From the NCBI RefSeq assembly GCF_007747215.1, contig NZ_CP036273.1, positions 1,720,322 through 1,784,321 on the forward strand: DNA of 64,000 bases. Direction: 5' to 3'. The stretch's first letter is position 1; every line of letters starts with the position of its first letter. This document shows, piece after piece, positions 8,685-22,531 of this stretch. Made by a program: the position numbers and the translations under genes. The DNA comes from Urbifossiella limnaea. GTDB taxonomy: Bacteria; Planctomycetota; Planctomycetia; Gemmatales; Gemmataceae. Under the pieces are notes generated by a model. It was not told the DNA's origin. It did not search any database and worked only from the letters and a program-made list of their open reading frames with translations.

Positions 8685-8758
8685 GGGCGTTTAGCTCAGC
8701 TGGCTAGAGTACCACATTGACATTGTGGGGGTCACTGGTTCAAGTCCAGTAACGCCCA
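8685..8758 (+). tRNA. tRNA-Val (anticodon GAC)
   Basis: A complete 74-base cloverleaf. The acceptor stem is GGGCGTT (8685-8691) with AACGCCC (8751-8757) and discriminator A at 8758. The D stem is GCTC/GAGT, the anticodon stem CCACA/TGTGG (8712-8716 and 8724-8728), with loop TTGACAT and anticodon GAC at 8719-8721, reading GUC valine codons. The T stem is ACTGG/CCAGT with loop TTCAAGT. CCA is not encoded. The 3' part from the anticodon loop onward is duplicated at 21561-21603, so this tRNA is the integration target of the island downstream. Confidence 0.95.
8716..8758 (+). other. attL, 43-bp core repeat inside tRNA-Val
   Basis: Identical over 43 bases to 21561-21603. It starts at the last base of the 5' anticodon stem and ends at the discriminator base. 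The bases just outside differ (C before attL, G before attR). Since the tRNA here is intact, this 3' part was supplied by the incoming element and restores the gene. Confidence 0.92.
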
Positions 8759-8766
8759 CTCGACAC

Positions 8767-8799
8767 AAGAAGCCGCACCCCAACGGGTTGCGGCTTCTT
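8767..8799. terminator. Terminator hairpin after tRNA-Val (island copy)
   Basis: Arms 8767-8781 and 8785-8799 pair over 15 bases with one mismatch around loop AAC, followed by CGTTTG. It is nearly the same hairpin as 21613-21645. It lies just inside the island, so the element carries its own version of the host tRNA terminator. Confidence 0.8.
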
Positions 8800-8832
8800 C
8801 GTTTGTCTGGGGTGACGGCATTTTTGCCCCCG

Positions 8833-8852
8833 TTGACAGCCTATTGACAGCC
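8833..8852. repeat. Left pair of arm-type direct repeats
   Basis: TTGACAGCC occurs at 8833-8841 and again at 8844-8852, an 11-base period. A matching pair with the same period lies at the other end of the island (21435-21454). Paired short repeats inside both ends of an integrated element are what arm-type integrase binding sites look like; binding itself is inferred. Confidence 0.6.
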
Positions 8853-8856
8853 AAAC

Positions 8857-10044
8857 TCAGCCGAACAGGGCGTCCGCTCCGGCTGCGAGTTTGTCGTCGT
8901 CGTTCGGCATGACGTGGGCGTAAGTTTTCAGCGTGATCCCGATGTCGGCGTGCCCCAGCCGCCGGGACACAGCTTTGATCGAGTGCCCGGCCGCGATCAT
9001 GCACGTAGCGTGCGTGTGCCGCAAGTCGTGGAACCGCACGCCGGCCGGGAGTTGGACAGGGCTGTCGCTCCCCGCGTCCGCAGCACGCTTCACGCCGAGC
9101 GCGTTCGCCCGCTTGACGAGCGGGGCGTGGACGCGGCGGATGAAGTTGCTCTTCGGCATCGGCGTGCCTGCGAGCGTGCAGAAGACGGGGGCGGCGATGA
9201 ACCCGGCCTTCAGCGCGGCAGTGCGGTGCTCCTTGAGCGCGGCGAGCGCGAACGCGGGCAGGACGATTGTCCGCCGCCCGGCCTTCGACTTCGGCTCCTT
9301 CAGGACAGGCTTCCCCTTGACCCAGCTGAGAGAGCGTTTCACATCGACTGTTCCCTTATCGAAGTCGATGTCGGCCCACTGGAGACCGAACATCTCCCCC
9401 TGCCGCATCCCCGAGCCGAGCGCGAGCGCGTACAGCGCGGAGAGCCGGTGCGACTTCGCGGCGTCGAGGAAGAGACGCGCTTGCAGTTCGGTGAGGAAGA
9501 CCATCTCGCGGGCCACCGGCCGCGCCTTCGCCACGTCGGCGGCGGGGTTGTGCAGGATGAGCTTCATGCGAACCGCGTGCTTGAGCGCGAGCGACAGCAC
9601 GATGCCGGCCGTCTTACGAGTCCAAGCGGACGCCACCTTCCGGTCGCTCGCACCCACCACCATCTGGGCGTAGCTCTGCTCGACGTGCAGAGGGGCGAGT
9701 TTCGACAACTTGATTCCGCCGAGCGTCGGGATCAGGTACAACTCGGTGACCTGACGATATCGCTCCCACGTACCGTCGTGGACTTTCTCCTTCGCAGTGT
9801 TGTGAAGCCAGCGCGTCAGGTACTCGCCGGTCGTCAGTTGCTCCGTCTCGACGAGCCGGCCGGCGTCATTCTCGGCCTGGAGCTTCCGCAGCTTCTCGGC
9901 AACGTCCTTCTTCGACGTGCCGTAAATCGTCTTCCGCCGCCGCTTCCCGGTCGCATCCACGCCTAGCGAGATTTCAGCCGCCCATCGGCCGTCGCCTCGC
10001 TGGATGATCGCGCCTTCGCCCCGTCCGCGCCGCTTGCGTGCCAT
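8857..10044 (-). CDS. int: Tyrosine site-specific integrase
   Basis: A 395-residue phage/ICE-type integrase that would recombine the island into and out of tRNA-Val. The N-terminal arm-binding AP2-like domain (about residues 8-60) includes GDGRWAAEISLG. A SAM-like core-binding domain spans about 70-165. The catalytic domain holds the full active-site set: Arg214 in GMRQGE, the Lys in EPKSKAGRRTIVLP, His339 and Arg342 in HDLRHTHAT, His365 in LGHADIGIT, and the nucleophile Tyr375 in LKTYAHV. Length is normal and nothing is missing, so it should be active. It reads toward attL and ends 98 bases from the tRNA. The start is the ATG at 10044, opposite a 318-bp regulatory gap. Confidence 0.95.
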   Translation of the reverse strand: MARKRRGRGEGAIIQRGDGRWAAEISLGVDATGKRRRKTIYGTSKKDVAEKLRKLQAENDAGRLVETEQLTTGEYLTRWLHNTAKEKVHDGTWERYRQVTELYLIPTLGGIKLSKLAPLHVEQSYAQMVVGASDRKVASAWTRKTAGIVLSLALKHAVRMKLILHNPAADVAKARPVAREMVFLTELQARLFLDAAKSHRLSALYALALGSGMRQGEMFGLQWADIDFDKGTVDVKRSLSWVKGKPVLKEPKSKAGRRTIVLPAFALAALKEHRTAALKAGFIAAPVFCTLAGTPMPKSNFIRRVHAPLVKRANALGVKRAADAGSDSPVQLPAGVRFHDLRHTHATCMIAAGHSIKAVSRRLGHADIGITLKTYAHVMPNDDDKLAAGADALFG

Positions 10045-10572: not shown

Positions 10573-10699
10573 CCCGAGGTAGCCCGTACCAACCCGCCGG
10601 CCGGAAGGGTGTCACTGACGCCCTTGCTTGGCCTCCACTCGTAACCGCTCATAATCCGTTTGAATGTCGCCGCCGGCGAAGGCTTCGGTCTGAAAATGA

Positions 10700-10730
10700 C
10701 CGCGGCCCGGGGTAGTGACCCGAGCCGCGG
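10700..10730. promoter_or_regulatory. GC-rich hairpin in the leader of the replication gene
   Basis: CCGCGGC...CGGG pairs with CCCG...GCCGCGG across 10700-10730 with one mismatch. It ends 18 bases before the ATG of the prim-pol gene at 10749, just ahead of its Shine-Dalgarno (AGGAA). It could terminate transcription from the xis-like gene or regulate replication protein synthesis. Confidence 0.5.
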
Positions 10731-10748
10731 TGAAGAACAGGAACCAAC

Positions 10749-13208
10749 ATGGATACTGTAGCAGCCTCTGCGCCCAAATGCCATGATACTTGTCACGAAA
10801 ATTTCGCCAACGACTGCACGACAACGCCGCCCGACGCTCTGGCCGACTTGACCCCCGTGCAAGTCGCCGCTGTCGAGTATTGCGCGGACAAGTTGGCGAT
10901 TTGCAACGTCGATCCCGCAGAAAAGAGCGTCACCTATTCCGGGTGGCAACTTGGCGGAACCCCGCCGAACCAAATCGGGCCGAAACACAACATCGGCATT
11001 GTGTGCGGTCAAGTGTCCGCACCGACCGGCCATTCACTCGTCTGCGTTGACGTGGACGACGCGCAAGCGTTGGCGTTGGCGCCGGACTTCCTCCCGCCGA
11101 CGGGCATGTCCGACGGCCGGCCGAGCAAGCCGCGCGCTCACTGGTGGTATCTCGTTCCCACTAACACGATCCCCGAGTGGTTGCGGAGTAAGGCACCAAA
11201 AACTGCGCCCATGATGCTCGCACGGTACGGGCATCCGGGGATGACGGGCACATACTTCACGCGGCCGAAGAGCGGGAAGCACGTTATCGACTTCAAGGCG
11301 TCCGGCTCGCAAGCCGTCGCCCCACCGTCGATCCACGAATCGGGTGAAGTGCGCGAGTGGGAAGGGGGGAAGCGCGGCACTCCCACCGTCGTTGATGCCC
11401 TGGCACTGTGGCGGGCGGTCTGCGACTTGGCCGCCGCTTGCGACTGCCGCCCGCCGACGAAGACGGCCAGCGCCAAGCGGCCGAAGAAAGCCGCCGCCAC
11501 GGTGGCCGTCCCGACGGCTCCGGCAACGCCTAACGACGACACCGACGACGACACCGAAGACGACGATCAATTGCACTACCTGTGCGGCGTGAACCCGCAC
11601 GCCCTCAGCGGTGACGCGCTCACGGTCGCGGAAAAACGGGCACGCGCCAACTTGAATGCGATCCCTGATGCCGACCTGCCAATCGACGGCGAGGGCGGCG
11701 ACGCGACGACAGTCAAGATTCTCGGCGCGCTCGTTTATGGCTTCCAGCTACCGCGCGACTTGGTGATCCGCGTGTTCGTGGATCACGTCAACTCGCGCCT
11801 TGTGCCGCCGAACAAGCCGTGGACCGAACCGGCAATCGCGTACAAGGTTGATTGGCTCATCTTCCGCGGTCCCGACGAGCGCTTCCCCGTAGGCGAGCTG
11901 CTCAAGAACCGCCCGATGACCAGCACGCGGTCGCGCCCACGACAAGACGCGGGCGTTGGCGCCGACGCAAAGCTCGTGTTCTCGTCGCTCGCGGGGGTCA
12001 TCCCCAAGCCGCTCACGTTTCTCGTGCCCGGCTTCATCCCCAGTGGGATGCTCGGGATGATCGCCGGCGAGGGCGGGCACGGGAAGTCACTCATCACGCT
12101 CGACCTGATCGCGGCGATCACGACCGGCAAGTGCCCGCTCGGCCTCGACTACCCCGACGGCGTCGTCGGCTCGTGCATCCTGATCGCGTGCGAGGACGAC
12201 TGGGAGCGGACGATCGTGCCCCGGCTGCTCGCACTCGGCGCCGACCTGTCGAAGGTGTACCGGATCGACGGGCTCAAACTCACCGACGGCGGCGTCCTCG
12301 ACTTCGACCTGTCGCACGCCAAGCAGCTCCGCGAGATGGTCGAGAAGATCGGCGACGTGAAGCTCATCGTGATCGACCCGGCCGGCGCGTTCGTCGGCCG
12401 CGCCGGCGTGGACGAGCACAAGGACGCCGAACTGCGGTCGCTACTCGGCCCGCTGTCGGAGCTGGCGAACGAGACAGGCGCGACGGTGCTGATGGTGAAG
12501 CACCTGAACAAAAACGTCGGCGTGGCGGCCGTCCAGCGCGTCGGCGGGAGCGCCGGCTACGTCAACGCGGTGCGGTTCTCGTACATCGTGACGCCCGACC
12601 GGGACGACGCGACCCGGAAGCTATTCATCCCGCTGAAGGCCAACGTCCTCCCCGGCGACCTGAAGGGGCGGGCGTACCGGATCAACGTCGCGCCGCTGGA
12701 CGCCGCTCACTCGTTGCTTGGAAACAAGTTTCCCGACCTCAAGCCGGACGACCGGGAGACGATCGCCAAGCAGCTCGTCCGCACCACGTGGGAACCCGAG
12801 CCGATCGACATCGACGCCAACGCCGCGACAGCCGCCCCCGGCGGTCGCCGGCCGGCGGGGCAGCTCGACGCCTGCAAGGTCATCATCCGCGACTTCCTCG
12901 GCGCTCACTCGCGCCCGGTCGCGGAGTTGGACAGCGCGGCCGGCCGCGCCTTCCCGGCGAAAGTCGTGAAGGAGGCGAAGAAGCAGCTCCGCGAGCTTCC
13001 GGCCGGCAACCCGGACAAGCTGTGGACGCGACCGCTGAACGAAGGCGGCAAGTGGTGGGCGTGGGTCGGTCCAGACGGCAACCCCCGTCCACCGCACCCC
13101 GACGACGCCCCGGCAGTCTGTCCCTCAACCGGCAGCCCTGACCAGACTGACGGAACAGACGAGACTGCCCAGGCCGCCCAAACTGCTCCACAGGGGGGTG
13201 AGGTTTGA
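10749..13208 (+). CDS. Prim-pol / RepA-like helicase replication protein
   Basis: An 819-residue fusion for autonomous replication of the island. The N-terminal primase-polymerase domain (about residues 30-240) has the metal-binding DVDD (Asp101, Asp103) in SLVCVDVDD, then KPRAHWWYLVP and TGTYFTRPKSGKHVIDFK. A linker with an acidic low-complexity stretch (about 257-275) leads to a RecA/AAA_25-type ATPase (about 410-650) with Walker A GEGGHGKS at 440-447, a Walker B-like KLIVIDPAGAFV, and MVKHLNKN. The C-terminal part (about 700-800) is probably a winged-helix DNA-binding region. Such prim-pol/helicase fusions drive plasmids, satellites and prophages. The start has AGGAA seven bases upstream. 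A candidate origin lies directly downstream. Confidence 0.88.
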   Translation: MDTVAASAPKCHDTCHENFANDCTTTPPDALADLTPVQVAAVEYCADKLAICNVDPAEKSVTYSGWQLGGTPPNQIGPKHNIGIVCGQVSAPTGHSLVCVDVDDAQALALAPDFLPPTGMSDGRPSKPRAHWWYLVPTNTIPEWLRSKAPKTAPMMLARYGHPGMTGTYFTRPKSGKHVIDFKASGSQAVAPPSIHESGEVREWEGGKRGTPTVVDALALWRAVCDLAAACDCRPPTKTASAKRPKKAAATVAVPTAPATPNDDTDDDTEDDDQLHYLCGVNPHALSGDALTVAEKRARANLNAIPDADLPIDGEGGDATTVKILGALVYGFQLPRDLVIRVFVDHVNSRLVPPNKPWTEPAIAYKVDWLIFRGPDERFPVGELLKNRPMTSTRSRPRQDAGVGADAKLVFSSLAGVIPKPLTFLVPGFIPSGMLGMIAGEGGHGKSLITLDLIAAITTGKCPLGLDYPDGVVGSCILIACEDDWERTIVPRLLALGADLSKVYRIDGLKLTDGGVLDFDLSHAKQLREMVEKIGDVKLIVIDPAGAFVGRAGVDEHKDAELRSLLGPLSELANETGATVLMVKHLNKNVGVAAVQRVGGSAGYVNAVRFSYIVTPDRDDATRKLFIPLKANVLPGDLKGRAYRINVAPLDAAHSLLGNKFPDLKPDDRETIAKQLVRTTWEPEPIDIDANAATAAPGGRRPAGQLDACKVIIRDFLGAHSRPVAELDSAAGRAFPAKVVKEAKKQLRELPAGNPDKLWTRPLNEGGKWWAWVGPDGNPRPPHPDDAPAVCPSTGSPDQTDGTDETAQAAQTAPQGGEV

Positions 13209-13214
13209 GATTTG

Positions 13215-13256
13215 TCAGTTACGTCAGTTAGATCAGTCTGTTTCAGTCTTGTCAGT
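13215..13256 (+). repeat. Iteron-like TCAGT repeats (candidate origin)
   Basis: TCAGT occurs five times, at 13215, 13224, 13233, 13243 and 13252, with a spacing of 9-10 bases; the first, second and last copies share a longer GTCAGTT. The array starts seven bases after the replication gene's stop. Short repeats at about one helical turn beside a replication gene resemble iterons that bind a replication initiator. Function inferred. Confidence 0.55.
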
Positions 13257-13268
13257 TTAGTCCACACA

Positions 13269-13287
13269 CCCAACCCAAACCCAACCC
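13269..13287 (-). promoter_or_regulatory. G-quadruplex motif next to the repeats
   Basis: On the minus strand this reads GGGTTGGGTTTGGGTTGGG, four runs of three G with loops of 2, 3 and 2, the canonical G4 pattern. It lies 13 bases after the TCAGT array, in a non-coding gap, and may mark or regulate the candidate origin. Confidence 0.6.
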
Positions 13288-13353
13288 ACCTGTGGAGCGG
13301 TAGTGGGGTGGGCGGGCGGCGCCGGACGGGCCGACGCTGCCGAAATCGAATCA

Positions 13354-13374
13354 CCCCGCCCGCAACGGGCGGGG
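13354..13374. promoter_or_regulatory. Perfect 9-bp hairpin before the gene at 13395
   Basis: CCCCGCCCG (13354-13362) pairs perfectly with CGGGCGGGG (13366-13374) around loop CAA. It ends 10 bases before the GGAG Shine-Dalgarno of the next gene. It may be part of the origin region or a leader hairpin. Confidence 0.55.
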
Positions 13375-13394
13375 CATACTGAAGGAGAGTTACT

Positions 13395-13946
13395 GTGAAT
13401 GATCCAATCCGCGAAACGCTCCGCCGGCTGTGCACGCGGGGGCTGGCCGAATTTCTAGAGTTGGCGCCGGCGGCTGTGACCAAAGACGCGGTGACGGCCG
13501 CGATGACTACGCCGGCGAAACTATATCTGGACACAACCGTCACTGACCGCGCGAAACGCGCCCGGTTAGGGCGGATGCTCCAAGAAATCGCCGCCGAAGT
13601 GTTTGCCGCCGCGATCGCAGCGGGGACGGTGGTTCTCAGCAGCAAGCCGGTGTCGGTGGAGGACATCAAAGCCGGCGGGTTGCAAGCGACGCTCTCAGCC
13701 GAGTTTCGCGAGGAGCTCCATCACGTCTGCCGTACCGCAATGGACGCGATCCTGACGAGTGGCCGGCTGCGCTACACGACCGACCAAGTGCTCGATCTGA
13801 TGGTGATCGCCGCAGGGCATCTGGTCGCGTCGAAGACGAACGACCCCGCCGAGCGCCTACGCCTGATGTCCGGGTGTCAGGAAGCGGCACTGGCAGCGAT
13901 GCAGGAGGCGTCACTACGCGGCAAGACCGCATTTGTGCGTAACTGA
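13395..13946 (+). CDS. Hypothetical island protein
   Basis: A 183-residue, mostly helical, soluble-looking protein that I do not recognise. It has no signal peptide, membrane segment or obvious catalytic motif. The sequence alternates Ala-rich helices (QEIAAEVFAAAIAAGTVV, residues about 62-79) and a C-terminal helical part with ERLRLMSGCQEAALAAMQEA. The GTG start at 13395 is supported by GGAG seven bases upstream. Located between the replication module and a small HTH protein, it may belong to the replication or copy-control module; this is only positional. A hairpin that looks like a terminator follows at 13967-14011. Confidence 0.65.
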   Translation: MNDPIRETLRRLCTRGLAEFLELAPAAVTKDAVTAAMTTPAKLYLDTTVTDRAKRARLGRMLQEIAAEVFAAAIAAGTVVLSSKPVSVEDIKAGGLQATLSAEFREELHHVCRTAMDAILTSGRLRYTTDQVLDLMVIAAGHLVASKTNDPAERLRLMSGCQEAALAAMQEASLRGKTAFVRN

Positions 13947-13966
13947 CGCGGCGATACCCTCCGGGC

Positions 13967-14011
13967 TCCTTCCCGGTCGCAAAGGCCGATCCTCGAAGCG
14001 ACCGGGAAGGA
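13967..14011. terminator. 14-bp perfect inverted repeat after the gene at 13395
   Basis: Arms 13967-13980 and 13998-14011 are perfectly complementary over 14 bases with a 17-base loop. It starts 20 bases after the stop codon at 13946 and ends 48 bases before the next start. There is no T run, so it may be a hairpin terminator or a protein-binding site. Confidence 0.5.
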
Positions 14012-14059
14012 ACTGGCGCAGAGCGCTTCCACGACTGACCACTCAACACAGAGACGACC

Positions 14060-14527
14060 ATGCAAGAAATCGAGAGCAGCGCCGCGCTGGATGCCCGCGA
14101 CGCCTACATCGTCGCCGGCACCGTCGCGGGGAAGACGCCGACCGTCATCGCCGCCGAGCTTGGCGTTTCGGTCCACACCATCTACCGCCGGCTCAAGGCG
14201 GCACCCGTCCGGCAAGCGTTGACCGAAGCACGAGCGGCCGAGGTCCGGCCGCTCGTCGCCCAGGCGGTCGGCGAAGTTCAAAAGTCCGTTGAGCGGTTGG
14301 TCGCAGTGCGCGACGGGGAGACGACGCGAGACGGCGACCGCATCCGGGCGTCAGTCGCGATTCTGGACTGGTTTTCGCGAGTCTGGGAAATGGGCGAAGT
14401 CCTGCCCCGCATCGCGGCCCTTGAAGCGCAGCTCGCCGCGAGTGCATTAATCATCGAGACCACGAATCAACATACCTCCTGTAATATAGATGCAGTGCCG
14501 GAAGGTATGGTAGCTGATGATTGTTGA
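14060..14527 (+). CDS. Small helix-turn-helix protein, phage-type
   Basis: A 155-residue protein with an N-terminal HTH (about residues 15-52), seen in GKTPTVIAAELGVSVHTIY followed by RRLKAAPVRQAL. The pattern resembles HTH domains of resolvases, DNA-packaging small subunits and phage regulators. The middle is helical (EVRPLVAQAVGEVQKSVERL). The C-terminus (about 130-155) is unlike the rest and lies where base composition falls, so the end may have been altered when the AT-rich cargo was inserted. No large terminase or capsid gene accompanies it. It ends 99 bases from the convergent FRG gene. Role uncertain: regulator or remnant of a packaging small subunit. Confidence 0.65.
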   Translation: MQEIESSAALDARDAYIVAGTVAGKTPTVIAAELGVSVHTIYRRLKAAPVRQALTEARAAEVRPLVAQAVGEVQKSVERLVAVRDGETTRDGDRIRASVAILDWFSRVWEMGEVLPRIAALEAQLAASALIIETTNQHTSCNIDAVPEGMVADDC

Positions 14528-14626
14528 TCGATTGAAGCAGTTTGCATCTGCAATGTATATTCTGATCGAGAATAACCACAATGCGTGCCAATCAAATGAT
14601 AATAATGACCAAATAATGGTGCTAGA

Positions 14627-15406
14627 TCAAGGCAGAGTCGTCTTAAGTCGTTCGCCAATGTTCGCGAGCTCAGGAAAGACATTATGCTTGTTGATTGCTA
14701 GCAGCTGCAGTTCGCGAACAATGTTAGGCTTGGATTCACGCGGAACGCGATAATTGCGCACATGCGACCCATCGGCCACACGCTCGACCGCGATTGGCTG
14801 CTTATGCAAAAGTGTGAAAGTGCCGAGTTGCGCCTGCATGCGGGGGGAATTGCGAATTGCGGTGATCGCAACAGGAGGGTAGCTTAGCGTAGTGGCCCCA
14901 CGAACGTTACCAGGGAGAAATGGAGCAAGAATGGGATCGCCATAATAAGGAATGTATTTTGAATACTTCGGATAAAGATTCGAGGCCTCGTTGAGCTTCA
15001 ATGGGTTCAACAGCCAGAGCGCACCGTCCCGATCGAACCGAAGGGGATTGCAAACGGCGAAGAATAATGCAACGAGAGGGCTCTCCGTCCAGTCGAGCAG
15101 GCGAGTTGGACATCCGTAGTGCTGCATCAGCGCGAGCCAGTCCCAATCGGAGGTGACAGGACGTTGCAGGAGCAGCGATGCATCTTGCTGAAAGCGAGCC
15201 ATGAGGTCAAGTTCGGCATCAAGATGGGCGGGGTTCCTAGCCAGCGATGGAGTAAGCGTCCACGCGGCGTCGTCGTGGCCTCGATACCAAAATGGATGGT
15301 CCGAGTCGACTGCAATTGCAGACAGCAGGGTTAGCAAGTCGGCGACACTTCCGATGTCACCCTGGGATGCAATAGAGGCCGCAGAGACTGGAGGAGTAGC
15401 AGCCAT
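14627..15406 (-). CDS. FRG domain-containing protein
   Basis: A 259-residue protein built around an FRG domain (about residues 20-240). The signature segments are FWYRGH (39-44) and QHYGCPTRLLDW (95-106) followed by TESPLVALFFAV (107-118), plus TPSLARNP. FRG domains are widespread in phages, genomic islands and defence loci, and their biochemical activity is not settled. No signal peptide or membrane segment is seen, so it should be cytoplasmic. The ATG at 15406 has a strong GAGGGGA Shine-Dalgarno and is preferred over an in-frame ATG at 15460 that lacks one. It follows the NACHT gene by 60 bases in the same direction, so both are probably one operon: sensor/switch NTPase plus candidate effector. 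Base composition is low-GC like its partner. Confidence 0.85.
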   Translation of the reverse strand: MAATPPVSAASIASQGDIGSVADLLTLLSAIAVDSDHPFWYRGHDDAAWTLTPSLARNPAHLDAELDLMARFQQDASLLLQRPVTSDWDWLALMQHYGCPTRLLDWTESPLVALFFAVCNPLRFDRDGALWLLNPLKLNEASNLYPKYSKYIPYYGDPILAPFLPGNVRGATTLSYPPVAITAIRNSPRMQAQLGTFTLLHKQPIAVERVADGSHVRNYRVPRESKPNIVRELQLLAINKHNVFPELANIGERLKTTLP

Positions 15407-15466
15407 CAAATCCCCTCGCAAAAGAGATGGAAGCGCACACCATTCGACGCTGGAAAACATGCTTGT

Positions 15467-18130
15467 TCATCTATAATAATCCATTTCCTCCTCGATACCA
15501 GCGGCGTCGGTAGCCGCGTCGTTTGCGAGCAAATCCGCGAATTTGCCATCGGTTCGACGATTGCGAGAGATAAGTTGCTGCATTCGCTGCCTGACAGCCG
15601 GAGGCTGTTGTTGAACCATTGCCGTAATTGTACGGAGACCTCTCGTGAGACGACCTTGAGCGGTAAGATAGGTAATCAGCCACTCAAGATCGCCAGCGAG
15701 TTGAGCAAAAAGGACATAAACGTCATGCCACCACGGCTCGCCGATATGATCACCTACCCGCCTCGACCGAGCACTATTAAGCTCAACTGCTACCAAGTAC
15801 TCCTGATATCGCAAATGTCCAAAGCCCCATTCACCTGCAGCGGTCATTGGGACCAATATATTGCATGGATCAATGAGCTCATCGACAGCTGTTGCAGCCA
15901 TCTCTCTTGCATTCTTGCCGTGATGATAAGATGCGATCGCGTCCTCTGCAATCTTATACATTGCCTCTTTAGACATATATCGACGCGTTCGCTCATGCAT
16001 TTCATGAGCGATCGAACGCGCAACAGTCTCTAGGTCTCTATGGTGTGTAGTAATACGACTAACTTGCTTGTGACTATCGTAGTGCCCCAGCAACAAGCGA
16101 AATCGTTCCTCATATAGCCGAATCTCGCTATTTGGCAGAGGTATGTTTTTCTCAGCAAGGACGCATAATGCTGTTGCCAGAAGCGGATTGCGAACTATCG
16201 CTGCCACCTTTCGGTGCGCTTGCAAGTGGGCAGTAATATCCTTTACACGATTGTGCGGATCACCACCAAACCATAGCAAAAAGAACTGATCTCGCTGTTC
16301 ATCGGTAAAAGGCAACAAAGTAATCTCAAGCCAGCCATTTTTTGATAAGCTCGCATCGGAGACGCGCGAGGAAGCAACAACCTGAACGGCAGGGTACTTT
16401 CGTGAGAACTGAACAATTGCATCCACGATCCAGGGCGCCACTTTAATAACTTCGTCAATGCCGTCAAATAGCAAAGACACACTACCGCTTGAGAACAGCG
16501 CGTCGAGATGGACTGCCGTCAAGTCGCTCGCCAATGAGGCCAGAAAACACTTCACACCCGATTCCAACACTGGCACCGGCCCTGTATCTCGCGACAATTC
16601 TTCCCTCTCTTTCCAAGCATGAAGAAGCCTGTTCAACGGTATATACAGGGCAAAGCGCCGTCCCAGTACATAGTTTGCCAGTTGTTTAGTAGCATACATC
16701 TGAAGACTTGTGGTCTTGCCCGCGCCGGCCTCGCCATATACAACTAGATTGGAGCCGGTCTTAAGAACCTCGTGAATTGAAAGAGAGAGCCGGTAAGGGC
16801 GGTCGTAGTAAGAATAGGTAGGCGACGCCTCTATGGCCACCTTCGAGCTGATTATCTCGTGCGAGAGTGCAACCATCACGCCACGTGTAAAATGATGAAA
16901 GTCCCGCAGAAATGAAGACAACTCGTCATGCTGCGGAGGACGAGTGTTAAATGCTTCGATTCTACGCCTAAGTGCCTCGCGCCCGACTAAGATGTGCTCA
17001 ACCAGGGGCGCAGTTTCAACGGTTACGCTAATAATTGGGGCAACAACAGCTTCGCGGTAGCCTTTGAGTTGGGCCTCAACCTCTCGGCGCCTACCGCTCT
17101 TGGCGACATAATTCGTCGCGACATCAATAAGTCCGTCTTCGGGCATCGAAGCCAGCAAGGCCACATCCTTCATAAGAATTTTATCTTTATCGGCCAATCG
17201 CAACGATTTTCCATCCGAGCCAATCAAGTGCCAATCTTGCTGGTTGACAGCAAGAACAATCGCATCGACCAAGTTCGTGAATTTTACTTTGGCAAGTTCC
17301 TGCCCTGGCTCTTCAGTTGCTTTCGCAGCAAGCTTTAATTCTTGTAGCAAGCGTGCACACTCTAAACGCAAGCCGAGCACCTCCGAATGCGCGCGTTTGA
17401 TTTCTTTTTGAATACGCGACTGCTCATCTACCTCACCCTGGTAGTTATTCTCTATACGATCCGAATCTCCTTCAATGACGTGAACCCCTATTAACTGATA
17501 TACCGACGCATCGACTCCGCGGAGATGATGCCATTCCGGCTGCTGTAGCTCCAGCACAGCTCGACCCGATTTAATGTTACCCTCAAGAAACCTATGGGCA
17601 CGAGTCCCTAATGCAAAATCAATATCGGTATAAAATGAATCTATCCTACGACTACTAGTATGCGTTAGCGCATCCATCAGCGTGGCATTATCGAGCAAAC
17701 TTTGCGCCGCATCACTGTAAGCAAGGGCTTCTCCCTTATCCCCCTCAGTTACCGCAACTGGGCTCTGACCCAAATTCTTGCCTGCCTGAACCGTAGAGAT
17801 GTTGCCACAGCTTGTCGCTCGACTAATAACCAGCAGATCTGACTTGCTAAGCTTTAGCTCATTGGATGATAACAAAATGATGACATGCACAATTCCCTTT
17901 TTTCGCCCCACTGCTTTGCCCACATCTTTGATCGTCTTAGACCGAATTGCCGCTGATCGCCCCAATGGCCCAAGCCCGATACCTACAACTCGCTCAACCT
18001 GTCCAAAAGCCGCCTGCTTCTCGCCGCATACAATGCAGAAATCGCCCTCTAACACTGTGTCTGCGATCGCATATCCCAGCCGCGCAAACTCGGTTAGGAT
18101 TTGCTGACACAGCACATTCGCGTCCCCCAT
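15467..18130 (-). CDS. NACHT-family STAND NTPase
   Basis: An 887-residue NLR-like signal-transduction NTPase. Residues 1-230 form an unrecognised alpha/beta region, 240-290 a coiled-coil-like helix (QKEIKRAHSEVLGLRLECAR). The NACHT domain has Walker A GEAGAGKT at 466-473, the hallmark acidic Walker B LLFDGIDE (Asp556, Asp559, Glu560), and sensor-like VVASSR. A winged-helix/superhelical part follows, with the FGHLRYQEYLVA block at 770-781 that matches the FxHxxxQEYLAA motif of NACHT proteins. Only about 105 residues follow, so there is no long LRR or TPR sensor. Bacterial NACHT proteins can be phage sensors that trigger abortive infection. The ATG at 18130 has GGTGA just upstream. The partner gene encodes an FRG protein. 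GC content is far below the flanks. Confidence 0.9.
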   Translation of the reverse strand: MGDANVLCQQILTEFARLGYAIADTVLEGDFCIVCGEKQAAFGQVERVVGIGLGPLGRSAAIRSKTIKDVGKAVGRKKGIVHVIILLSSNELKLSKSDLLVISRATSCGNISTVQAGKNLGQSPVAVTEGDKGEALAYSDAAQSLLDNATLMDALTHTSSRRIDSFYTDIDFALGTRAHRFLEGNIKSGRAVLELQQPEWHHLRGVDASVYQLIGVHVIEGDSDRIENNYQGEVDEQSRIQKEIKRAHSEVLGLRLECARLLQELKLAAKATEEPGQELAKVKFTNLVDAIVLAVNQQDWHLIGSDGKSLRLADKDKILMKDVALLASMPEDGLIDVATNYVAKSGRRREVEAQLKGYREAVVAPIISVTVETAPLVEHILVGREALRRRIEAFNTRPPQHDELSSFLRDFHHFTRGVMVALSHEIISSKVAIEASPTYSYYDRPYRLSLSIHEVLKTGSNLVVYGEAGAGKTTSLQMYATKQLANYVLGRRFALYIPLNRLLHAWKEREELSRDTGPVPVLESGVKCFLASLASDLTAVHLDALFSSGSVSLLFDGIDEVIKVAPWIVDAIVQFSRKYPAVQVVASSRVSDASLSKNGWLEITLLPFTDEQRDQFFLLWFGGDPHNRVKDITAHLQAHRKVAAIVRNPLLATALCVLAEKNIPLPNSEIRLYEERFRLLLGHYDSHKQVSRITTHHRDLETVARSIAHEMHERTRRYMSKEAMYKIAEDAIASYHHGKNAREMAATAVDELIDPCNILVPMTAAGEWGFGHLRYQEYLVAVELNSARSRRVGDHIGEPWWHDVYVLFAQLAGDLEWLITYLTAQGRLTRGLRTITAMVQQQPPAVRQRMQQLISRNRRTDGKFADLLANDAATDAAGIEEEMDYYR

Positions 18131-18355
18131 ATGTCACCGTGTTTGCGTGTTTTACAACCAACCGTCTTCAATCGACTATCCTGGGCGATTCTCGTAACTG
18201 CCTAGAGTACTCGGCCCACCTCTTACTGTCAAAGCAAATCCCGCCTATGACATCCAGAAACGCATCAAAACAAGCGCAAATGAACACTCGGCACAATTTT
18301 TCCCCTCGTCCTCATTTCGCGAAACATGACCAACTGCATATGAATCCACTCCACA

Positions 18356-18755
18356 TCACCGCCCGGGGTGCCAGACCGCGATCATCTGCTTCAGGTACTT
18401 CCGGCACACGTCTGCGCCGGCCTGGGTGAGCCGGTACTTCGCGTCGTCGAGCCGCACCCACCCCTTCTTCAGTGTCGCGGCGAGCGCCGGCTTGTAGTAG
18501 CTCCCCCTGGTACGCTTCGAGGATGCGTCCCTTCGGCTCGCCGAACAGCGCCCGGAGAATCCGCAGCTCGCGAGCGTCGATCGTCTCGCCTAGTGCCGGC
18601 AGCTTGTCCGCTTGCATGATTTCACTCGCGGCCGTCGTAGTGACGGCGGGCGTGGCGGTTGCACCATGCGTTCGCCTGCTCACGATCGCCGTGCCGAGCG
18701 CGCCGACGACGGTCCCCGCGGTGTCAATGATCGCGATTAGCACGCCTTCCGACAT
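18356..18755 (-). pseudogene. Small membrane/winged-helix gene broken by a frameshift
   Basis: The frame from ATG 18755 encodes an N-terminal membrane helix (LIAIIDTAGTVVGALGTAIV, residues 6-25), a linker and a helix ELRILRALFGEPKGRILEAY. After the C5 run at 18503-18507 (G5 on the coding strand) the frame turns into arginine-rich shadow sequence and ends at 18312. Removing one G restores a clean protein: SYYKPALAATLKKGW, then VRLDDAKYRLTQAGADVCRK, ending at a TGA at 18356-18358. The restored product would be about 132 residues, with a C-terminal winged-helix-like part. This is either a real frameshift or a homopolymer sequencing error. The start overlaps the end of the next gene by 19 bases. 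Confidence 0.7.
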
Positions 18756-19699
18756 AGGCGACTCCTACCGGTGCCCGTTCGTGTTGTAGGAGAATTGTCG
18801 CCGAAACTGACGGAACGATCAAGCTCCGATATGTCCGGCGTCGAGGCGACGCGGTTCGACTTCGGCAGCCGCTCAATACCAGTGCGATAGTTGAGCGATC
18901 GGCGATGGTACCCACCGCACGCTCGATACTTGTCGCCCGGCCGGCGAGCGGTTTTCGGCTGCGGCGCGGAGTTCTCGACCTTCAACTTCAGTGCCGACGC
19001 CCACACCTCCCGCGGAACGCGGAAGCGGATCGTGTCGCGCTGCTCGACGTGCGAGCCGTCCAGGTCGAGGTCGAGGTACTCCGCGGCCGGCGTCGGCTTC
19101 TCGAACAGCAGGAGGTCGCCGTGCGGCCGATTCGAGTAAACGGCGCCGGCCCCCATCCCGATCTTGCCCGCAAGCTGCTGTCCGGCCGCCGCGAACGCCA
19201 TCTCGGTTGCGAGGTCGAAGCCCTTCGGGTGGTACACCGTCCCGTTGTTGTCGGTCAGCTTCACCTTCGTCCGACTGAGCAGCGGGTCGCGCCACGACCG
19301 GAACGTCACCTTCTCCTTCGGATCGGCGACCCGGACTGCGACGAATACCATGAAGTCGTCGCCGCTGACGCTCGCGCCGCGGAACTGGACCGACGACGGC
19401 CCGGCGTCCCAATGCTCGTCGGGGGCAAGGGCTCGCCCGGCGCCCGCTCCCGCCTTCCCCTTTGCCCCCTGCCCGGTCGCGGAGCCGCTATCCAAATCGC
19501 CCGCGCCCAAATTACCCCCTCCTGCCGTCGCCTGCGTTCCGTCCTGCTGCTGATCCCGTGGCTTGCCGGTCGCGAGGTAGATCACCAGTGCGCGCGCGGC
19601 GGAACCAGCGCCCACCATCGCGACGCCCGCGACGATCCACGCCCACAGCGGAACACCGCGCCGCGGCGCGGCCATCCGCAGCGGGCCGGGGCTGATCAT
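18737..19699 (-). CDS. Membrane-anchored hypothetical protein with beta-rich domain
   Basis: A 320-residue protein with one N-terminal transmembrane helix (about residues 17-45, WAWIVAGVAMVGAGSAARAL), a Gly/Ala/Gln-rich spacer (about 48-90), then a beta-rich domain (about 95-250) with VQFRGASVSGDDFMVFVAVR, VTFRSWRDPLLSRTKVKL and the RDTIRFRVPREVW strand. The pattern recalls extracellular DUF4352-type immunoglobulin-like domains, but I cannot assign a family. The last 60 residues are Ser/Arg-rich. ATG codons at 19699 and 19675 both fit; neither has a strong Shine-Dalgarno. It overlaps the frameshifted gene downstream by 19 bases, so the two were probably co-expressed, in a cassette with the membrane HNH protein. 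Confidence 0.6.
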   Translation of the reverse strand: MISPGPLRMAAPRRGVPLWAWIVAGVAMVGAGSAARALVIYLATGKPRDQQQDGTQATAGGGNLGAGDLDSGSATGQGAKGKAGAGAGRALAPDEHWDAGPSSVQFRGASVSGDDFMVFVAVRVADPKEKVTFRSWRDPLLSRTKVKLTDNNGTVYHPKGFDLATEMAFAAAGQQLAGKIGMGAGAVYSNRPHGDLLLFEKPTPAAEYLDLDLDGSHVEQRDTIRFRVPREVWASALKLKVENSAPQPKTARRPGDKYRACGGYHRRSLNYRTGIERLPKSNRVASTPDISELDRSVSFGDNSPTTRTGTGRSRLCRKAC

Positions 19700-19728
19700 G
19701 ACGCGCGAACCGAACGCGAACCCGGTGC

Positions 19729-20364
19729 CTAGATTTTGTTGCTTTTCGCTCCGTTACATGGCTGACACAGCAACTGGAGGTTTGCCACCGTAGTAGCGCC
19801 GCCCTGCGACACTGGAATGATGTGATCGAATTGTAAGTTCTGCTTAGTACCGCACTGAACGCAGCACCCCTTGTCACGCCGCCATACTTCACTCCTAACT
19901 GCCTCGGGAATCGGGGTTCGACTCGTCTGTTCGTAGGGCAGGGGTGGCACTGGAGCGTTAAACACCACGCCTGCCACGCCTTCCTCCATCCTGTCTTTTC
20001 GACCGAACGCCTCCATTTCCTTGTTGTACTTTCCCGCAAGCGAGTGGATATCAGTAATCAGTACGGCAATACCAACAGCTTCCGGCGAGCCGGCGGGCGC
20101 CTGCGACTTCTTCTTACAATGGAGACATTGGTAGCGTATCGATCGACAGTTCGGGCTAACTTCTATTAGTCCCATTGTGTACTCATAGCACTTAAAACAA
20201 GGCTGAACCGTGAACAGGATTTCCAGCCTTCTGCTAAGATCTACTCTCTTCGCCCAAATAGCCGCTTTCAGTTTGCTTATCTTGTTTGTGTGGTGAATCA
20301 CGACTCCAGCGATAATTGCGACGACTGTCCCCGCAAACACTGCTACCCCGATGACCACTTCCAT
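19729..20364 (-). CDS. Membrane-anchored HNH endonuclease
   Basis: A 211-residue protein. Residues 3-24 are a transmembrane helix (VVIGVAVFAGTVVAIIAGVV), followed by a basic, zinc-finger-like part with Cys pairs at about 56/59 and 80/83 (CFKC and CLHC). The C-terminal HNH nuclease (about 150-211) has CVQCGTKQNLQFDHIIPVS, then the central Asn in VANLQLL and CQPCN, giving the DH...N...CxxC treble-clef set. A nuclease tethered to the inner membrane is unusual and would suit attack on entering DNA, which is inference. I choose the ATG at 20364, which has GGGGTG upstream; an in-frame ATG at 20394 lies only 16 bases after a TAGAAT -10 element. Part of the island cargo. Confidence 0.75.
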   Translation of the reverse strand: MEVVIGVAVFAGTVVAIIAGVVIHHTNKISKLKAAIWAKRVDLSRRLEILFTVQPCFKCYEYTMGLIEVSPNCRSIRYQCLHCKKKSQAPAGSPEAVGIAVLITDIHSLAGKYNKEMEAFGRKDRMEEGVAGVVFNAPVPPLPYEQTSRTPIPEAVRSEVWRRDKGCCVQCGTKQNLQFDHIIPVSQGGATTVANLQLLCQPCNGAKSNKI

Positions 20365-20409
20365 GACAGCACCCCGTTGCAATCGAAAAGCCATCTCTCC
20401 AAAACTGTG

Positions 20410-20453
20410 ATTCTAGCCAGATAGCACACCCGTGCAACCCTCAATTGGGTTGC
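20410..20453 (-). promoter_or_regulatory. Promoter and overlapping hairpin of the HNH gene
   Basis: On the minus strand TTGCAC (20437-20432) precedes TAGAAT (20415-20410) by 16 bases, placing transcription start near 20403. A perfect inverted repeat, GCAACCC (20434-20440) and GGGTTGC (20447-20453), overlaps the -35 box and the stop codon of the upstream TIGR02996 gene (20441). It may terminate that gene or act as an operator. Confidence 0.5.
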
Positions 20454-20758
20454 GGGGCGCCGTCAAGGTAGTGACGGACCGTGAGGAAGCTAATTGCGGT
20501 TACCGTGCTGATCTGCTTGGACGTCTTACCTTCACCCCGGAGGGCGGCAACCCGAATGAACTCCGCGCGGCGCGCGGGGCTGTTCGGGACGTAGCGCTCC
20601 CACCCGTACATGCGGCAGTTGCGAGAGTATTTCCGCTTGAAGCAAACCCGGCAGCGAACACGCTCGGCGAAGTCGTCCAACCAGTCCGCGAACATCAGCC
20701 GAGGCGTGTCATCGTCGAGGCTGTCAAGTATCGCGTAGAGGAAGGCAGCTTCGTCCAT
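20441..20758 (-). CDS. TIGR02996 domain protein
   Basis: A 105-residue protein starting with the TIGR02996 module, a short domain expanded in Gemmata-like planctomycetes: MDEAAFLYAILDSLDDDTPR, then LMFADWLDD, and the paired helix ARRAEFIRVAALRGEG. The family usually precedes leucine-rich-like repeats and its function is unknown. Here the usual middle spacer is replaced by a Cys-rich stretch (RVRCRVCFKRKYSRNC, about residues 33-48), and the C-terminus (KTSKQISTVTAISFLTVRHY) is helical rather than repeat-like. It therefore looks like a compact variant. It marks the island as adapted to planctomycete hosts. It reads toward the HNH gene and ends in a hairpin at 20434-20453. Confidence 0.75.
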   Translation of the reverse strand: MDEAAFLYAILDSLDDDTPRLMFADWLDDFAERVRCRVCFKRKYSRNCRMYGWERYVPNSPARRAEFIRVAALRGEGKTSKQISTVTAISFLTVRHYLDGAPQPN

Positions 20759-21126
20759 CGTTCCACGGTATCACGCCGCGGGCCGCTCAGCTATGCGCCG
20801 TTGATCGGGGCGCGCAATTCCGGCCACTCGCCGCGTTCGACGGCATCCAGCCGCACGGAAGCCGTCCCCATGACCATCGCCCTGTCCGCCGTCATCGTCG
20901 CAGCGAACGTTTCCTTCTCCGTCCGCGCGTGGCGGCAGGAACGCGCCGTGGGGCGTTGAGGGGCGCGCAAACTGCAAAACCCAATGGCGCGTAGCCGGCG
21001 TGCCTAGAATGGCGTTGCGAAGGTCGCGAGCATTCGCAACGGTCGTACGACGGGGTAGCTGGAGGGATTACCACGAGAATCATCGCGGTCGAGAACGACG
21101 AGTACCTAGGGCGGGAATTCCAAAAC
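20759..21126. promoter_or_regulatory. Non-coding stretch with operator-like palindromes
   Basis: No convincing gene lies here; a 29-codon frame at 20870-20959 is too short to call. A perfect 9-bp inverted repeat, CGTTGCGAA (21013-21021) and TTCGCAACG (21033-21041), is followed at once by the 10-bp palindrome GTCGTACGAC (21042-21051) and a strong Shine-Dalgarno-like GGAGGG at 21061-21066. TAGAAT at 21005-21010 could be a -10 element. GGGGCGCGCAA is repeated at 20807 and 20960. The cluster looks like a promoter/operator for the frame that follows. Confidence 0.45.
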
Positions 21127-21438
21127 TTGCTGCGCGGCAGGCTTCGAGACGGCGGCTGGGAGAGGTTAGTCAGGATGATGAACGACGCCGGTTACATCGC
21201 GCGGCTCTGCGGTGACTTTACGGGGCTAGTTCCCCCCGTCGTGCCAAAGGAACTACGGTGGCGGGCGAAGCTGCGTCCGATGTGCGCCGGGGGGCGCCCC
21301 CTGATTGGCTACCTTCCACTCTTCGACCCCTACCAAACCGACCGGTGGTGGAGGATGATTTCCGGCCGTGCGCCGCTGGAGCTCGGGAAGCTCCCGCGTA
21401 GCCTCTCTCGGAACGCGACTGCATACGGCAGGAGTTGA
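21127..21438 (+). CDS. Hypothetical protein at the attR end of the island
   Basis: A 103-residue frame from the TTG at 21127 with coherent composition (GGWERLVRMMNDAGYIARL, then PLIGYLPLFDPYQTDRWWRM). I do not recognise it. The reading frame continues upstream without stop as IIAVENDEYLGREFQNLL and reaches a strong GGAGGG at 21061-21066, but no ATG, GTG or TTG lies at a suitable distance; ATT at 21067 and ATC at 21079 or 21082 are the only nearby near-start codons. Either the start codon has mutated, so this is a decaying gene, or a rare start is used. The stop overlaps the first arm-type repeat at 21435. Low certainty. Confidence 0.4.
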   Translation: MLRGRLRDGGWERLVRMMNDAGYIARLCGDFTGLVPPVVPKELRWRAKLRPMCAGGRPLIGYLPLFDPYQTDRWWRMISGRAPLELGKLPRSLSRNATAYGRS

Positions 21439-21454
21439 CAGCCAATCGACAGCC
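21435..21454. repeat. Right pair of arm-type direct repeats
   Basis: TTGACAGCC (21435-21443) and TCGACAGCC (21446-21454), with the same 11-base period and orientation as the pair at 8833-8852 and one base different. It lies inside the island, 106 bases from attR. Further CGGACAC words follow at 21472, 21482 and 21544. Likely integrase or excisionase binding sites. Confidence 0.6.
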
Positions 21455-21560
21455 TATGGCCCGGATAGGCTCGGACACCCCCGGACACTCCGACACTGGA
21501 ACCACTAGGATTTCCAGGCGATTCGGACGTTGCTGGACAGAGCCGGACACGCCGAAACGG

Positions 21561-21603
21561 ATTGACATTGTGGGGGTCACTGGTTCAAGTCCAGTAACGC
21601 CCA
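21561..21603 (+). other. attR, displaced 3' fragment of tRNA-Val
   Basis: An exact 43-base copy of 8716-8758. Upstream of it there is no acceptor 5' strand or D arm, so it is not a second tRNA gene but the original 3' part pushed to the far end by integration. It is followed by the host terminator hairpin. Confidence 0.92.
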
Positions 21604-21612
21604 TTCCGACAC

Positions 21613-21645
21613 AAGAAGCCGCAACCCAACGGGTTGCGGCTTCTT
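21613..21645. terminator. Original tRNA-Val terminator (host copy)
   Basis: Arms 21613-21627 and 21631-21645 form a perfect 15-bp stem with loop AAC, followed by CGTTTC. The copy next to attL (8767-8799) differs by one stem base. Here it also lies 4 bases from the stop codon of the convergent DUF1559 gene and may serve both directions. Confidence 0.8.
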
Positions 21646-21649
21646 CGTT

Positions 21650-22531
21650 TCATTCACCGCCCGTCAGTACCTCGCCGCCGGCGCGGGTGGTCAGCGCCGC
21701 CAGCACGGTGATGGGGGTGCCCGTTCGCAGGAACCGGACCGACCCGTCGGCCATGACCACACTCGCGCCGGCGAAGTGGAAGCCGTAGATCTCGTGGGTG
21801 TTCGTGCAGTTCACACCGCACGGCCCCCACGGGCCGGAGCCGTCGGCCAGCCAGCCGTCGAGGTTGATCGGGATGTTCCCGTTGGCCGCCGCCCACCCAC
21901 ACGGCTGGATGTCACCGGCGCGCCGACCGTTCTTCCACAGTTCCGGCCGGCCCGCTACCTCGGCGACGGCGATGCTGTTCGAGGTGCCGTCCAGGATGTC
22001 GGCGAACCGCGCCCCGGCGCCGACCGCGCACACGCCGGTGGGGTCGCCGCTCCACGGCGACAGCAGCCCGGTTGCGATGAGGTTCGGGTCCACGTCGTAG
22101 ATCGGGGAGTAGTCGCAGACGCCGTACACGAGCCCGCCGGCGGCATTGGTCGTCTCGCGGCCGCCGGGTGCCGACGGGCACACGAACACCGGCACGGCCA
22201 CGCCCACGGCCGGCTGGTTCTGCGGGTCGTCGTACTTCAGGTCGAACCGGTAGCGGTCGAACGCCGCGCGCTGCTCGACGTAGGGGAGCACGAACCCGCC
22301 GAAGCCGTGGAACCACTGGTTGTTGCGGAGGGCGACGGCCGGCGGGAAGCGGCCCTCGGCGTCGTGCCGCATGTGGCAGGCGGCGCCGATCTGCTTCAGG
22401 TTGTTCTGGCACTTCACCCGCGCCGCCGCCTCGCGGACCTTCTGCACCGCCGGCAGCAGCAGCCCGACCAGCACCGCGATGATGGCGATGACGACCAGCA
22501 GTTCGATGAGTGTGAACGCCCGGCGCGACAT
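21650..22531 (-). CDS. DUF1559 family prepilin-like protein
   Basis: A 293-residue protein of the DUF1559 family, hugely expanded in planctomycetes. The N-terminus has a type IV pilin-like methylation motif and helix, [20 protein letters not shown] (residues 3-22), cleaved after the short leader in related pseudopilins. The typical DUF1559 blocks follow: [62 protein letters not shown], and the C-terminal [11 protein letters not shown]. Location is expected to be the cell envelope; the biological role is unknown. The start ATG at 22531 is fixed by the pilin leader. It is the first host gene after the island and probably neighboured tRNA-Val before the insertion. Confidence 0.93.

What the first reader, a model, noticed from the sequence alone, without database searches (positions are those of the whole stretch)
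15467..18130. NACHT protein with an unrecognised 230-residue N-terminus and a short tail
Most bacterial NACHT proteins have a known effector at the N-terminus or a repeat sensor at the C-terminus. Here residues 1-230 show an alpha/beta pattern without a familiar motif (for example VERVVGIGLGPLGRSAAIRS), and only about 105 residues follow the QEYLVA block. A new effector or sensor fold is possible.
Basis: partly seen in the sequence, partly recalled or inferred. Interest (0 to 1): 0.65.

Follow-up and report, generated by a model that had tools for sequence, protein, structure and literature searches.

The report
NACHT defence protein, nuclease domain gone
This is one member of a widespread family of bacterial immune-type proteins that normally carry a DNA-cutting head; here the head is a shorter, unrecognisable, probably non-cutting domain, and a likely toxin-type enzyme gene sits right behind it, which suggests the alarm protein may have handed its killing job to a partner.

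Summary
The ORF (15467-18130, minus, 887 aa) is real, with intact NACHT Walker motifs. It belongs to a bacterial NACHT family found here in Planctomycetota, Bacteroidota, Verrucomicrobiota, Elusimicrobiota, Pseudomonadota and viral contigs. Homology starts near residue 137, not 231. The 106-residue tail is the family's ordinary C-terminus and lies within the stretch that aligns with NLR NACHT modules, so it is not a new sensor. Relatives carry a Mrr-like PD-(D/E)XK nuclease before that point (E-x-G-x-D...Q-x-K in 19 of 22 ORF pieces checked; the other three are broken or cut). This protein does not: a nuclease profile that scores 63.8 bits on a paralogue in the same genome finds nothing here. 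No sequence relative of residues 1-136 was found. Low-confidence models give alpha-beta-beta-beta-alpha-beta, and 7 of the 10 structural matches with Z 5.0-5.8 (below the trusted level) are, by recall, endonuclease-like folds. At the expected site the sequence reads D...Q-V-E. Six bases downstream lies an FRG (ART-superfamily) gene, not seen near the relatives examined. Best reading: a probably inactive endonuclease-like head, with FRG as candidate effector in trans. New variant of a known kind; the head's fold and the FRG link are inferred.

The parts
15467..18130 (-). NACHT protein, 887 aa, member of a Mrr-nuclease/NACHT family
   Evidence: ORF; NACHT Pfam; relatives; alignments
17723..18130 (-). 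residues 1-136: orphan N-terminal domain in the place of the family's Mrr-like nuclease; predicted alpha-beta-beta-beta-alpha-beta
   Evidence: no match to family nuclease profile; models; structural matches
17990..18046 (-). residues 29-47, GD...QVER: where the family has G-x-D...Q-x-K; the lysine position reads Glu46
   Evidence: positions; family motif; the correspondence is by eye and by predicted strands, not by a significant alignment
17465..17722 (-). residues 137-222: family-specific middle segment with YTDIDF motif
   Evidence: hhalign; alignment; model pLDDT up to 92 in blocks of ten
16841..17464 (-). residues 223-430: mostly helices, linking middle segment and NACHT
   Evidence: model
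15821..16792 (-). residues 447-770: NACHT module core, Walker A 466-473, Walker B 555-560
15470..15787 (-). residues 782-887: helical C-terminus conserved in the family, ending in EEEMDYYR
14627..15460 (-). FRG-domain gene (277 aa), 6 bases downstream, same strand; candidate effector in trans
   Evidence: PF08867 E 6.1e-28; PADLOC PDC-S15 E 2.5e-50; junction printed
8716..8804 (.). attachment-site-like repeat, copy 1, from inside tRNA-Val(GAC) 8685-8759 onwards
   Evidence: 90 columns, 96.7% identical to copy 2
21561..21650 (.). attachment-site-like repeat, copy 2; far end of the roughly 12.8 kb island
8857..10044 (-). tyrosine integrase of the island
   Evidence: PF00589 E 2.7e-22

Best explanation
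The gene encodes a bacterial NLR-like (NACHT/STAND) immune-type protein carried on a 12.8 kb integrative island. Shown by computation: it belongs to a family whose other readable members have a Mrr-like PD-(D/E)XK nuclease head, a conserved middle segment, a NACHT module and a short helical tail; in this member the head is gone as a recognisable nuclease. Inferred: the head is now a shortened, strongly diverged restriction-endonuclease-like domain without a lysine at the modelled catalytic site, acting as a ligand-binding or docking part and not as a cutter. Inferred: on infection the NACHT module binds ATP and oligomerises as in other STAND proteins, and the signal is passed to the FRG protein encoded six bases downstream, which would consume or transfer from NAD+ and stop the infected cell.
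For: Family membership: hhalign E 2.8e-94 over residues 137-863; phmmer matches down to E 1.1e-100 (L039). Nuclease head in relatives: PF04471 above its cut-off in G042's protein (24.3 against 21 bits) and in L053's (22.1 against 21); E-x-G-x-D...Q-x-K in 19 of 22 ORF pieces. Change is derived: the window protein groups with L045 and L047 (support 94/97, just under the program's starred level); L045 keeps the whole motif and L047 (the same broken gene as L029) keeps QVK in its separate piece. The same genome keeps a paralogue with an intact head (63.8 bits with the nuclease profile, EEGKD...QTK). Fold: alpha-beta-beta-beta-alpha-beta in the full model, for which relatives were cut before this part (at most 15 stray residues per row fall there; model), and in the best model of residues 1-123 alone; 7 of the 10 VIA-align chains with Z >= 5 are tRNA-splicing endonucleases, XisH proteins and EndoMS (their fold class is recalled). 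Operon: 6-base gap. FRG as ART-superfamily possible NADase effector: PMC9503650, passages seen.
Against: No sequence-level support that residues 1-136 descend from the family nuclease: hhalign probability 0.1%; HMMER gave the real stretch no score although 2266 of 3000 shuffles got one, and 126 of 200 shuffles of residues 1-60 align as well in a semi-global test. The fold models are weak (mean pLDDT 56.2, the other four models 32-41; Foldseek none at E <= 0.001; Z below 8; three of the ten best chains are not nucleases of this fold or are of unknown function). One E-x-K exists at 91-93; the models put it in a loop after the fourth strand, but they are too weak to dismiss it. FRG was not found near any of 18 family loci, and no family member near 18 FRG loci, so the pairing has no comparative support. 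The codon-usage score of residues 1-133 is below that of the rest of the gene.
Confidence: 0.4

Rival explanations
1. The head is still an active nuclease of the restriction-endonuclease-like fold that has diverged beyond recognition, with a non-standard active site (D30 with E46, or the E-x-K at 91-93), and acts in cis as in the relatives.
For: Predicted core order like a PD-(D/E)XK fold and an aspartate at the expected strand start; the position in the protein is that of the family nuclease; one E-x-K is present at 91-93. BamHI is known (recalled) to have Glu where others have Lys.
Against: The 19 relatives with a readable motif keep Q-x-K; here the corresponding place reads Q-V-E, and 91-93 is modelled after the fourth strand; a family profile that reaches the distant paralogue fails here.
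Confidence: 0.2
2. The nuclease was replaced by recombination with an unrelated, so far undescribed effector or sensor domain of about 135 residues.
For: No sequence relative of residues 1-136 was found in the plasmid, phage, viral-contig and genome searches run; N-terminal effector swapping is a general habit of STAND-type systems (recalled; PMC8195603 passages describe variable N-terminal domains in TRADD-N proteins).
Against: Predicted strand order and the best structural rows point to the endonuclease-like fold; VTEGDK at 127-132 lies where relatives have I-x-D-G-x-K or similar, which would fit erosion in place; neither is statistically significant.
Confidence: 0.22
3. Residues 1-136 are decay or are not translated: the head was lost, and the functional protein starts at or near residue 137-152, or the gene is no longer functional.
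For: Weaker codon-usage score than in the rest of the gene (-0.001 against 0.036 to 0.16 per codon) and a higher score on the opposite strand (0.10); the orphan status; both closest relatives are broken genes: L047/L029 in several frames and L045 split after the NACHT core.
Against: 133 codons without a stop at 50% GC; the three codon-position GC values resemble the rest; an ordered alpha/beta pattern is predicted; the NACHT motifs are intact.
Confidence: 0.14

Closest known systems
bNACHT25 / bNACHT32 (clade 6 bacterial NACHT proteins; PMC12169576, passages seen)
   Same: A NACHT protein with an N-terminal PD-(D/E)XK effector is the layout of this protein's relatives; there D48A abolishes defence and activation degrades DNA.
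   Different: Those carry an NCH1 C-terminus; none of the ten Pfam families matched by members of A6 at E <= 0.001 is NCH1 (whether the Pfam copy holds such a model was not checked). Sequence relation to bNACHT25 was not tested. The window protein lacks the nuclease.
Clade 14 bNACHT proteins with SNaCT tails and no discernible effector (PMC12169576, passages)
   Same: Short C-terminus and no recognisable effector domain.
   Different: This protein groups with nuclease-bearing relatives. SNaCT sequences were not at hand, so tail homology was not tested.
NA-iREase1 (PF22722; the long name, NACHT-associated inactive restriction endonuclease, is recalled)
   Same: Inactive endonuclease-like domain tied to NACHT proteins; inactive REases paired with NTPases are proposed as nucleotide sensors (PMC12839542, passages).
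   Different: No PF22722 match at E <= 0.001 in the window's genome; at most a functional parallel.
FRG-domain proteins (PF08867; PADLOC PDC-S15)
   Same: The neighbour gene is a clear member; Frg is described as an ART-superfamily possible antiviral effector and NADase (PMC9503650, passages).
   Different: Among 18 FRG loci looked at (15 stretches from genomes of the same class, 3 plasmids) none had a match to this NACHT family within the stretch.
EruA, NACHT antiphage protein (NCBIfam NF058535)
   Same: Similar NACHT core stretch (E 2e-7, best stretch residues 550-691); 9 of 16 members of A6 match it at E <= 0.001.
   Different: Far below the model's cut-off (29.6 against 1000 bits); not a member.

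Membership tests
NACHT/STAND NTPase | Walker A and Walker B of the NACHT NTPase | tested here: met
   GEAGAGKT 466-473, FDGIDE 555-560; PF05729 E 7.2e-4, below cut-off alone; 12 of 16 members of A6 match at E <= 0.001
NACHT/STAND NTPase | fold of the whole NACHT module (NBD to HD2; subdomain names recalled) | tested here: met
   VIA-align Z 15.9 (rmsd 5.3, 350 aligned) to rabbit NOD2 and 15.1 (7.3, 375) to NLRP3, model range about 133-859; a predicted model, not an experiment
Mrr-like nuclease/NACHT family of the relatives | homologous middle segment, NACHT and tail | tested here: met
   hhalign E 2.8e-94, residues 137-863
Mrr-like nuclease/NACHT family of the relatives | N-terminal nuclease with E-x-G-x-D...Q-x-K | tested here: not met
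   no profile match; site reads GD...QVER
PD-(D/E)XK / restriction-endonuclease-like fold (residues 1-136) | core order alpha-beta-beta-beta-alpha-beta | tested here: inconclusive
   predicted order agrees but model confidence is low and structural matches are Z 5-6
PD-(D/E)XK active nuclease (residues 1-136) | D...(D/E/Q)-x-K catalytic residues | tested here: inconclusive
   no lysine at the modelled third strand in either register, Q44-V-E46 or E46-R-V48; the only D/E/Q-x-K in 1-136 is E91-L-K93, modelled after the fourth strand
NA-iREase1 (PF22722) | match to the Pfam model | tested here: not met
   no match in the whole genome at E <= 0.001
Clade 14 bNACHT with SNaCT tail | SNaCT domain | not tested
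   no SNaCT sequence or model identified here
FRG domain (neighbour gene) | match to PF08867 | tested here: met
   98 bits against cut-off 25
Anti-phage defence system | protection against phage | not testable with these tools
   only context: mobile island; one relative beside a retron I-A/PtuAB set; one between phage tail genes

The most novel reading that the evidence does not exclude
A cis-to-trans effector switch in a bacterial NLR: the ancestral fused nuclease has been turned into an inactive docking or ligand-sensing domain, and the killing function has moved to a separate ART-superfamily (FRG) enzyme in the same operon, giving a two-gene receptor-plus-executioner system like animal NLR-caspase pairs.
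Probability: 0.25. Interest if true: 0.65.

Novelty: new variant of a known kind. Interest (0 to 1): 0.4.

Why it matters
STAND receptors usually carry their effector in the same chain. A member that has lost the recognisable nuclease while keeping intact NACHT motifs, in a genome that also keeps a nuclease-bearing paralogue, is a natural test of whether the NACHT module can drive a separate effector, and of what an inactive endonuclease-like head would do. It also brings out a nuclease-NACHT family spread over five phyla and viral contigs; in PADLOC no model matched more than 3 of 16 members at E <= 0.001, and in NCBIfam the commonest, EruA, matched 9 of 16, far below its cut-off in the two members whose scores I saw.

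Tried and rejected
Relatives of residues 1-136: 392 phylum genomes and 95 family genomes gave, besides the window itself and G042 (middle segment only), six weak matches (E 0.0066 to 0.044); on inspection they looked like unrelated proteins or frames and were dropped. Plasmids (residues 1-444, E <= 1) and phages (residues 1-134, E <= 5): no match. Single-protein scans of viral and genome contigs, which find close relatives only: none.

Hidden nuclease in another frame: family nuclease profile against six-frame pieces (20 aa or more) of the whole window, best E 19-21. Rejected.

XisH as the source of the head, suggested by the structural rows: pairwise alignment with one XisH protein was no better than shuffles (316 of 500 as high). 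The Pfam XisH model rang in 1 of 149 phylum genomes, not in this one.

Foldseek gave nothing at E <= 0.001 against viral models or PDB; PDB sequence searches with the whole protein (E <= 1) and with residues 1-143 (E <= 10) gave no hit. EruA with NACHT: no paper held. Phrase 'short NACHT-associated C-terminal': none. FRG as a fixed partner of the family: not found (the family profile was checked to work). G468 and G398 NACHT proteins, looked at as possible further nuclease-less members, lacked the nuclease profile and, by eye, the family's middle segment; I set them aside as other NACHT proteins.

Full report
Observation. The ORF at 15467-18130 (minus) is 887 aa with an ATG start. The NACHT core is recognisable but scores below Pfam's cut-off in this protein alone; a search of the window's genome with the NACHT model lists it as one of five places, again below cut-off.

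Finding the family. A search with residues 1-238 in 392 genomes of the phylum gave one useful match besides the window, to the middle segment of a contig-end gene in G042, whose own N-terminus matches Mrr_cat above cut-off. With that protein, 13 of 397 class genomes, the own one included, gave matches at E <= 0.01; NACHT relatives were found in G433, G747, G723 (broken) and G607 (two frames), a nuclease without NACHT in its frame in G681, and of the rest three were fetched and looked unrelated or more distant; G361, G421, G556 and G706 were not followed up. An alignment of C-terminal halves found three relatives in viral contigs, and an alignment with two of those found 16 loci in genome contigs: Bacteroidota, Verrucomicrobiota, Elusimicrobiota, Planctomycetota and Pseudomonadota including Salmonella enterica subsp. 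diarizonae, Vibrio lentus, Pseudoalteromonas and an Erwinia fragment. G723's contig has the same length as a contig titled Planctomycetia, so the window's class is probably Planctomycetia (inference).

What the family looks like. Relatives have a nuclease domain of about 170 residues, a middle segment with a Y-x-D-x-x-F type motif, long helices, NACHT and a short tail. Two of 16 members of A6, which includes the window protein, match Mrr_cat at E <= 0.001. The motif E-x-G-x-D...Q-x-K is present in 19 of 22 ORF pieces checked; of the other three, two are pieces of the broken G723 gene (one shows QVK) and one (L046) starts at its contig's end. One of the 19 is the G681 nuclease without NACHT. 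The window protein and its own-genome paralogue are not among the 22.

The window protein's head. Homology to the relatives' profile begins at residue 137. A profile of the family nuclease, built without the window protein, gives the paralogue of the same genome 63.8 bits but does not report this protein, nor any six-frame piece of the window (best E 19-21). Shuffle tests give no support for distant sequence homology: HMMER scored 2266 of 3000 shuffles but not the real stretch, and 126 of 200 shuffles did as well in a semi-global test. Two predictions were made. The full protein was aligned to 16 relatives cut before the end of their nuclease, so that at most 15 stray residues per row fell on residues 1-136; the head came out as helix 2-18, strands 21-28, 31-39, 45-53, helix 60-74, strand 81-87, helix 96-106, strand 111-115, with block pLDDT 56-70 up to residue 110. 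Residues 1-123 alone gave the same order up to residue 87, plus a short helix at 55-58 (mean pLDDT 56.2; other models 32-41). This is the order of the PD-(D/E)XK core (recalled). The ten PDB chains with Z 5.0-5.8 are three human tRNA-splicing endonuclease entries, one archaeal splicing endonuclease, two XisH proteins and EndoMS, which I place in the endonuclease-like fold from memory, and a gelsolin, a sphingomyelinase and a protein of unknown function; most rows below them are gelsolins. Foldseek itself had no match at E <= 0.001, so this is a lead and not a proof. Aspartate 30 stands before the second strand and Q44-V45-E46-R47 opens the third; many relatives have Q-V-K there. This residue correspondence is my reading. 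The only D/E/Q-x-K in 1-136 is E91-L-K93, after the fourth strand in the models.

The tail. In the full model the best rows, NOD2, NLRP3 and NLRC4 among them, align over about 131-860 (Z up to 15.9). The tail is conserved across the family, and no repeat sensor follows it. Where the family senses its trigger is unknown; the middle segment and helices are candidates (inference).

Phylogeny. On the NACHT part the window protein groups with two planctomycete sequences, L045 and L047 (94/97). L045 has the whole nuclease motif, though its gene is split after the NACHT core; L047 is the same broken gene as L029, whose separate piece keeps QVK. So the altered head is most simply a derived change. Support is just short of the starred level and the tree has long branches.

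Neighbourhood. The FRG gene starts six bases after the NACHT stop codon and is a strong PF08867 and PDC-S15 match. PMC9503650 (passages) places Frg in the ART superfamily and suggests possible NADase activity. No FRG match (E <= 10) was found among 123 ORFs within 3.5 kb of 18 family loci, several of which are cut by contig ends, and no family match (E <= 1) among 176 ORFs of 18 FRG loci (the 15 genome stretches are the non-own hits among the 16 of 297 class genomes, and three plasmid loci were picked from 315 records). The pair is therefore private to this locus as far as seen. Both genes are of low GC (0.50 and 0.55 against 0.69 for the window) and lie on an island between a tRNA-Val gene with an integrase beside it and a 90-column repeat of that tRNA's end at 21561-21650.

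Defence context of relatives. L037 lies beside a retron I-A reverse transcriptase and PtuA/PtuB genes. L036 lies between a tail-completion gene and a baseplate gene. Ten neighbour proteins that I picked from eight loci (not a sample) were sent to PADLOC: three at L037 and one at L052 (OLD/GajA-like) were clear, L049's matched only general ABC-type models and five gave nothing.

Judgement. Membership in the NACHT family is secure. That the nuclease is gone as a recognisable domain is secure within these searches. That the head is an inactive endonuclease-like domain is my best reading (about 0.5). That FRG is its effector is a hypothesis from operon structure and published FRG proposals (about 0.4). 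Papers were seen only as search listings, abstracts or passages, as stated.

Noticed in passing
8685-21650: A roughly 12.8 kb island in tRNA-Val(GAC): 90-column direct repeats at 8716-8804 and 21561-21650, tyrosine integrase, Prim-Pol/AAA protein, HTH-like protein, FRG, NACHT and HNH genes.
   Followed up: partly
L010 5418-8084 (G000:C1 about 6983417-6986083): Second NACHT protein in the same genome with an intact Mrr-like head (EEGKD...QTK), a ready comparison.
   Followed up: partly
L029 6544-8658 (same gene in L047) and L045 6452-10522: Both closest relatives are disrupted genes: one in several frames, the other split after the NACHT core with its end in a later frame; only pieces were searched.
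   Followed up: partly
L028 6746-7465: In G681 the same nuclease domain occurs in a 240-residue frame with another C-terminus and no NACHT, so the domain may move between partners.
   Followed up: no
L037 8192-11459: Retron I-A reverse transcriptase with PtuA- and PtuB-like genes close to a family member.
   Followed up: yes
L036 3605-8813: Family member between a phage tail-completion gene and a baseplate gene, a possible cargo or defence hotspot.
   Followed up: partly
15470-15535 and ends of relatives in A5: Many family members end in an acidic stretch with aromatic residues (here EEEMDYYR); role unknown.
   Followed up: no
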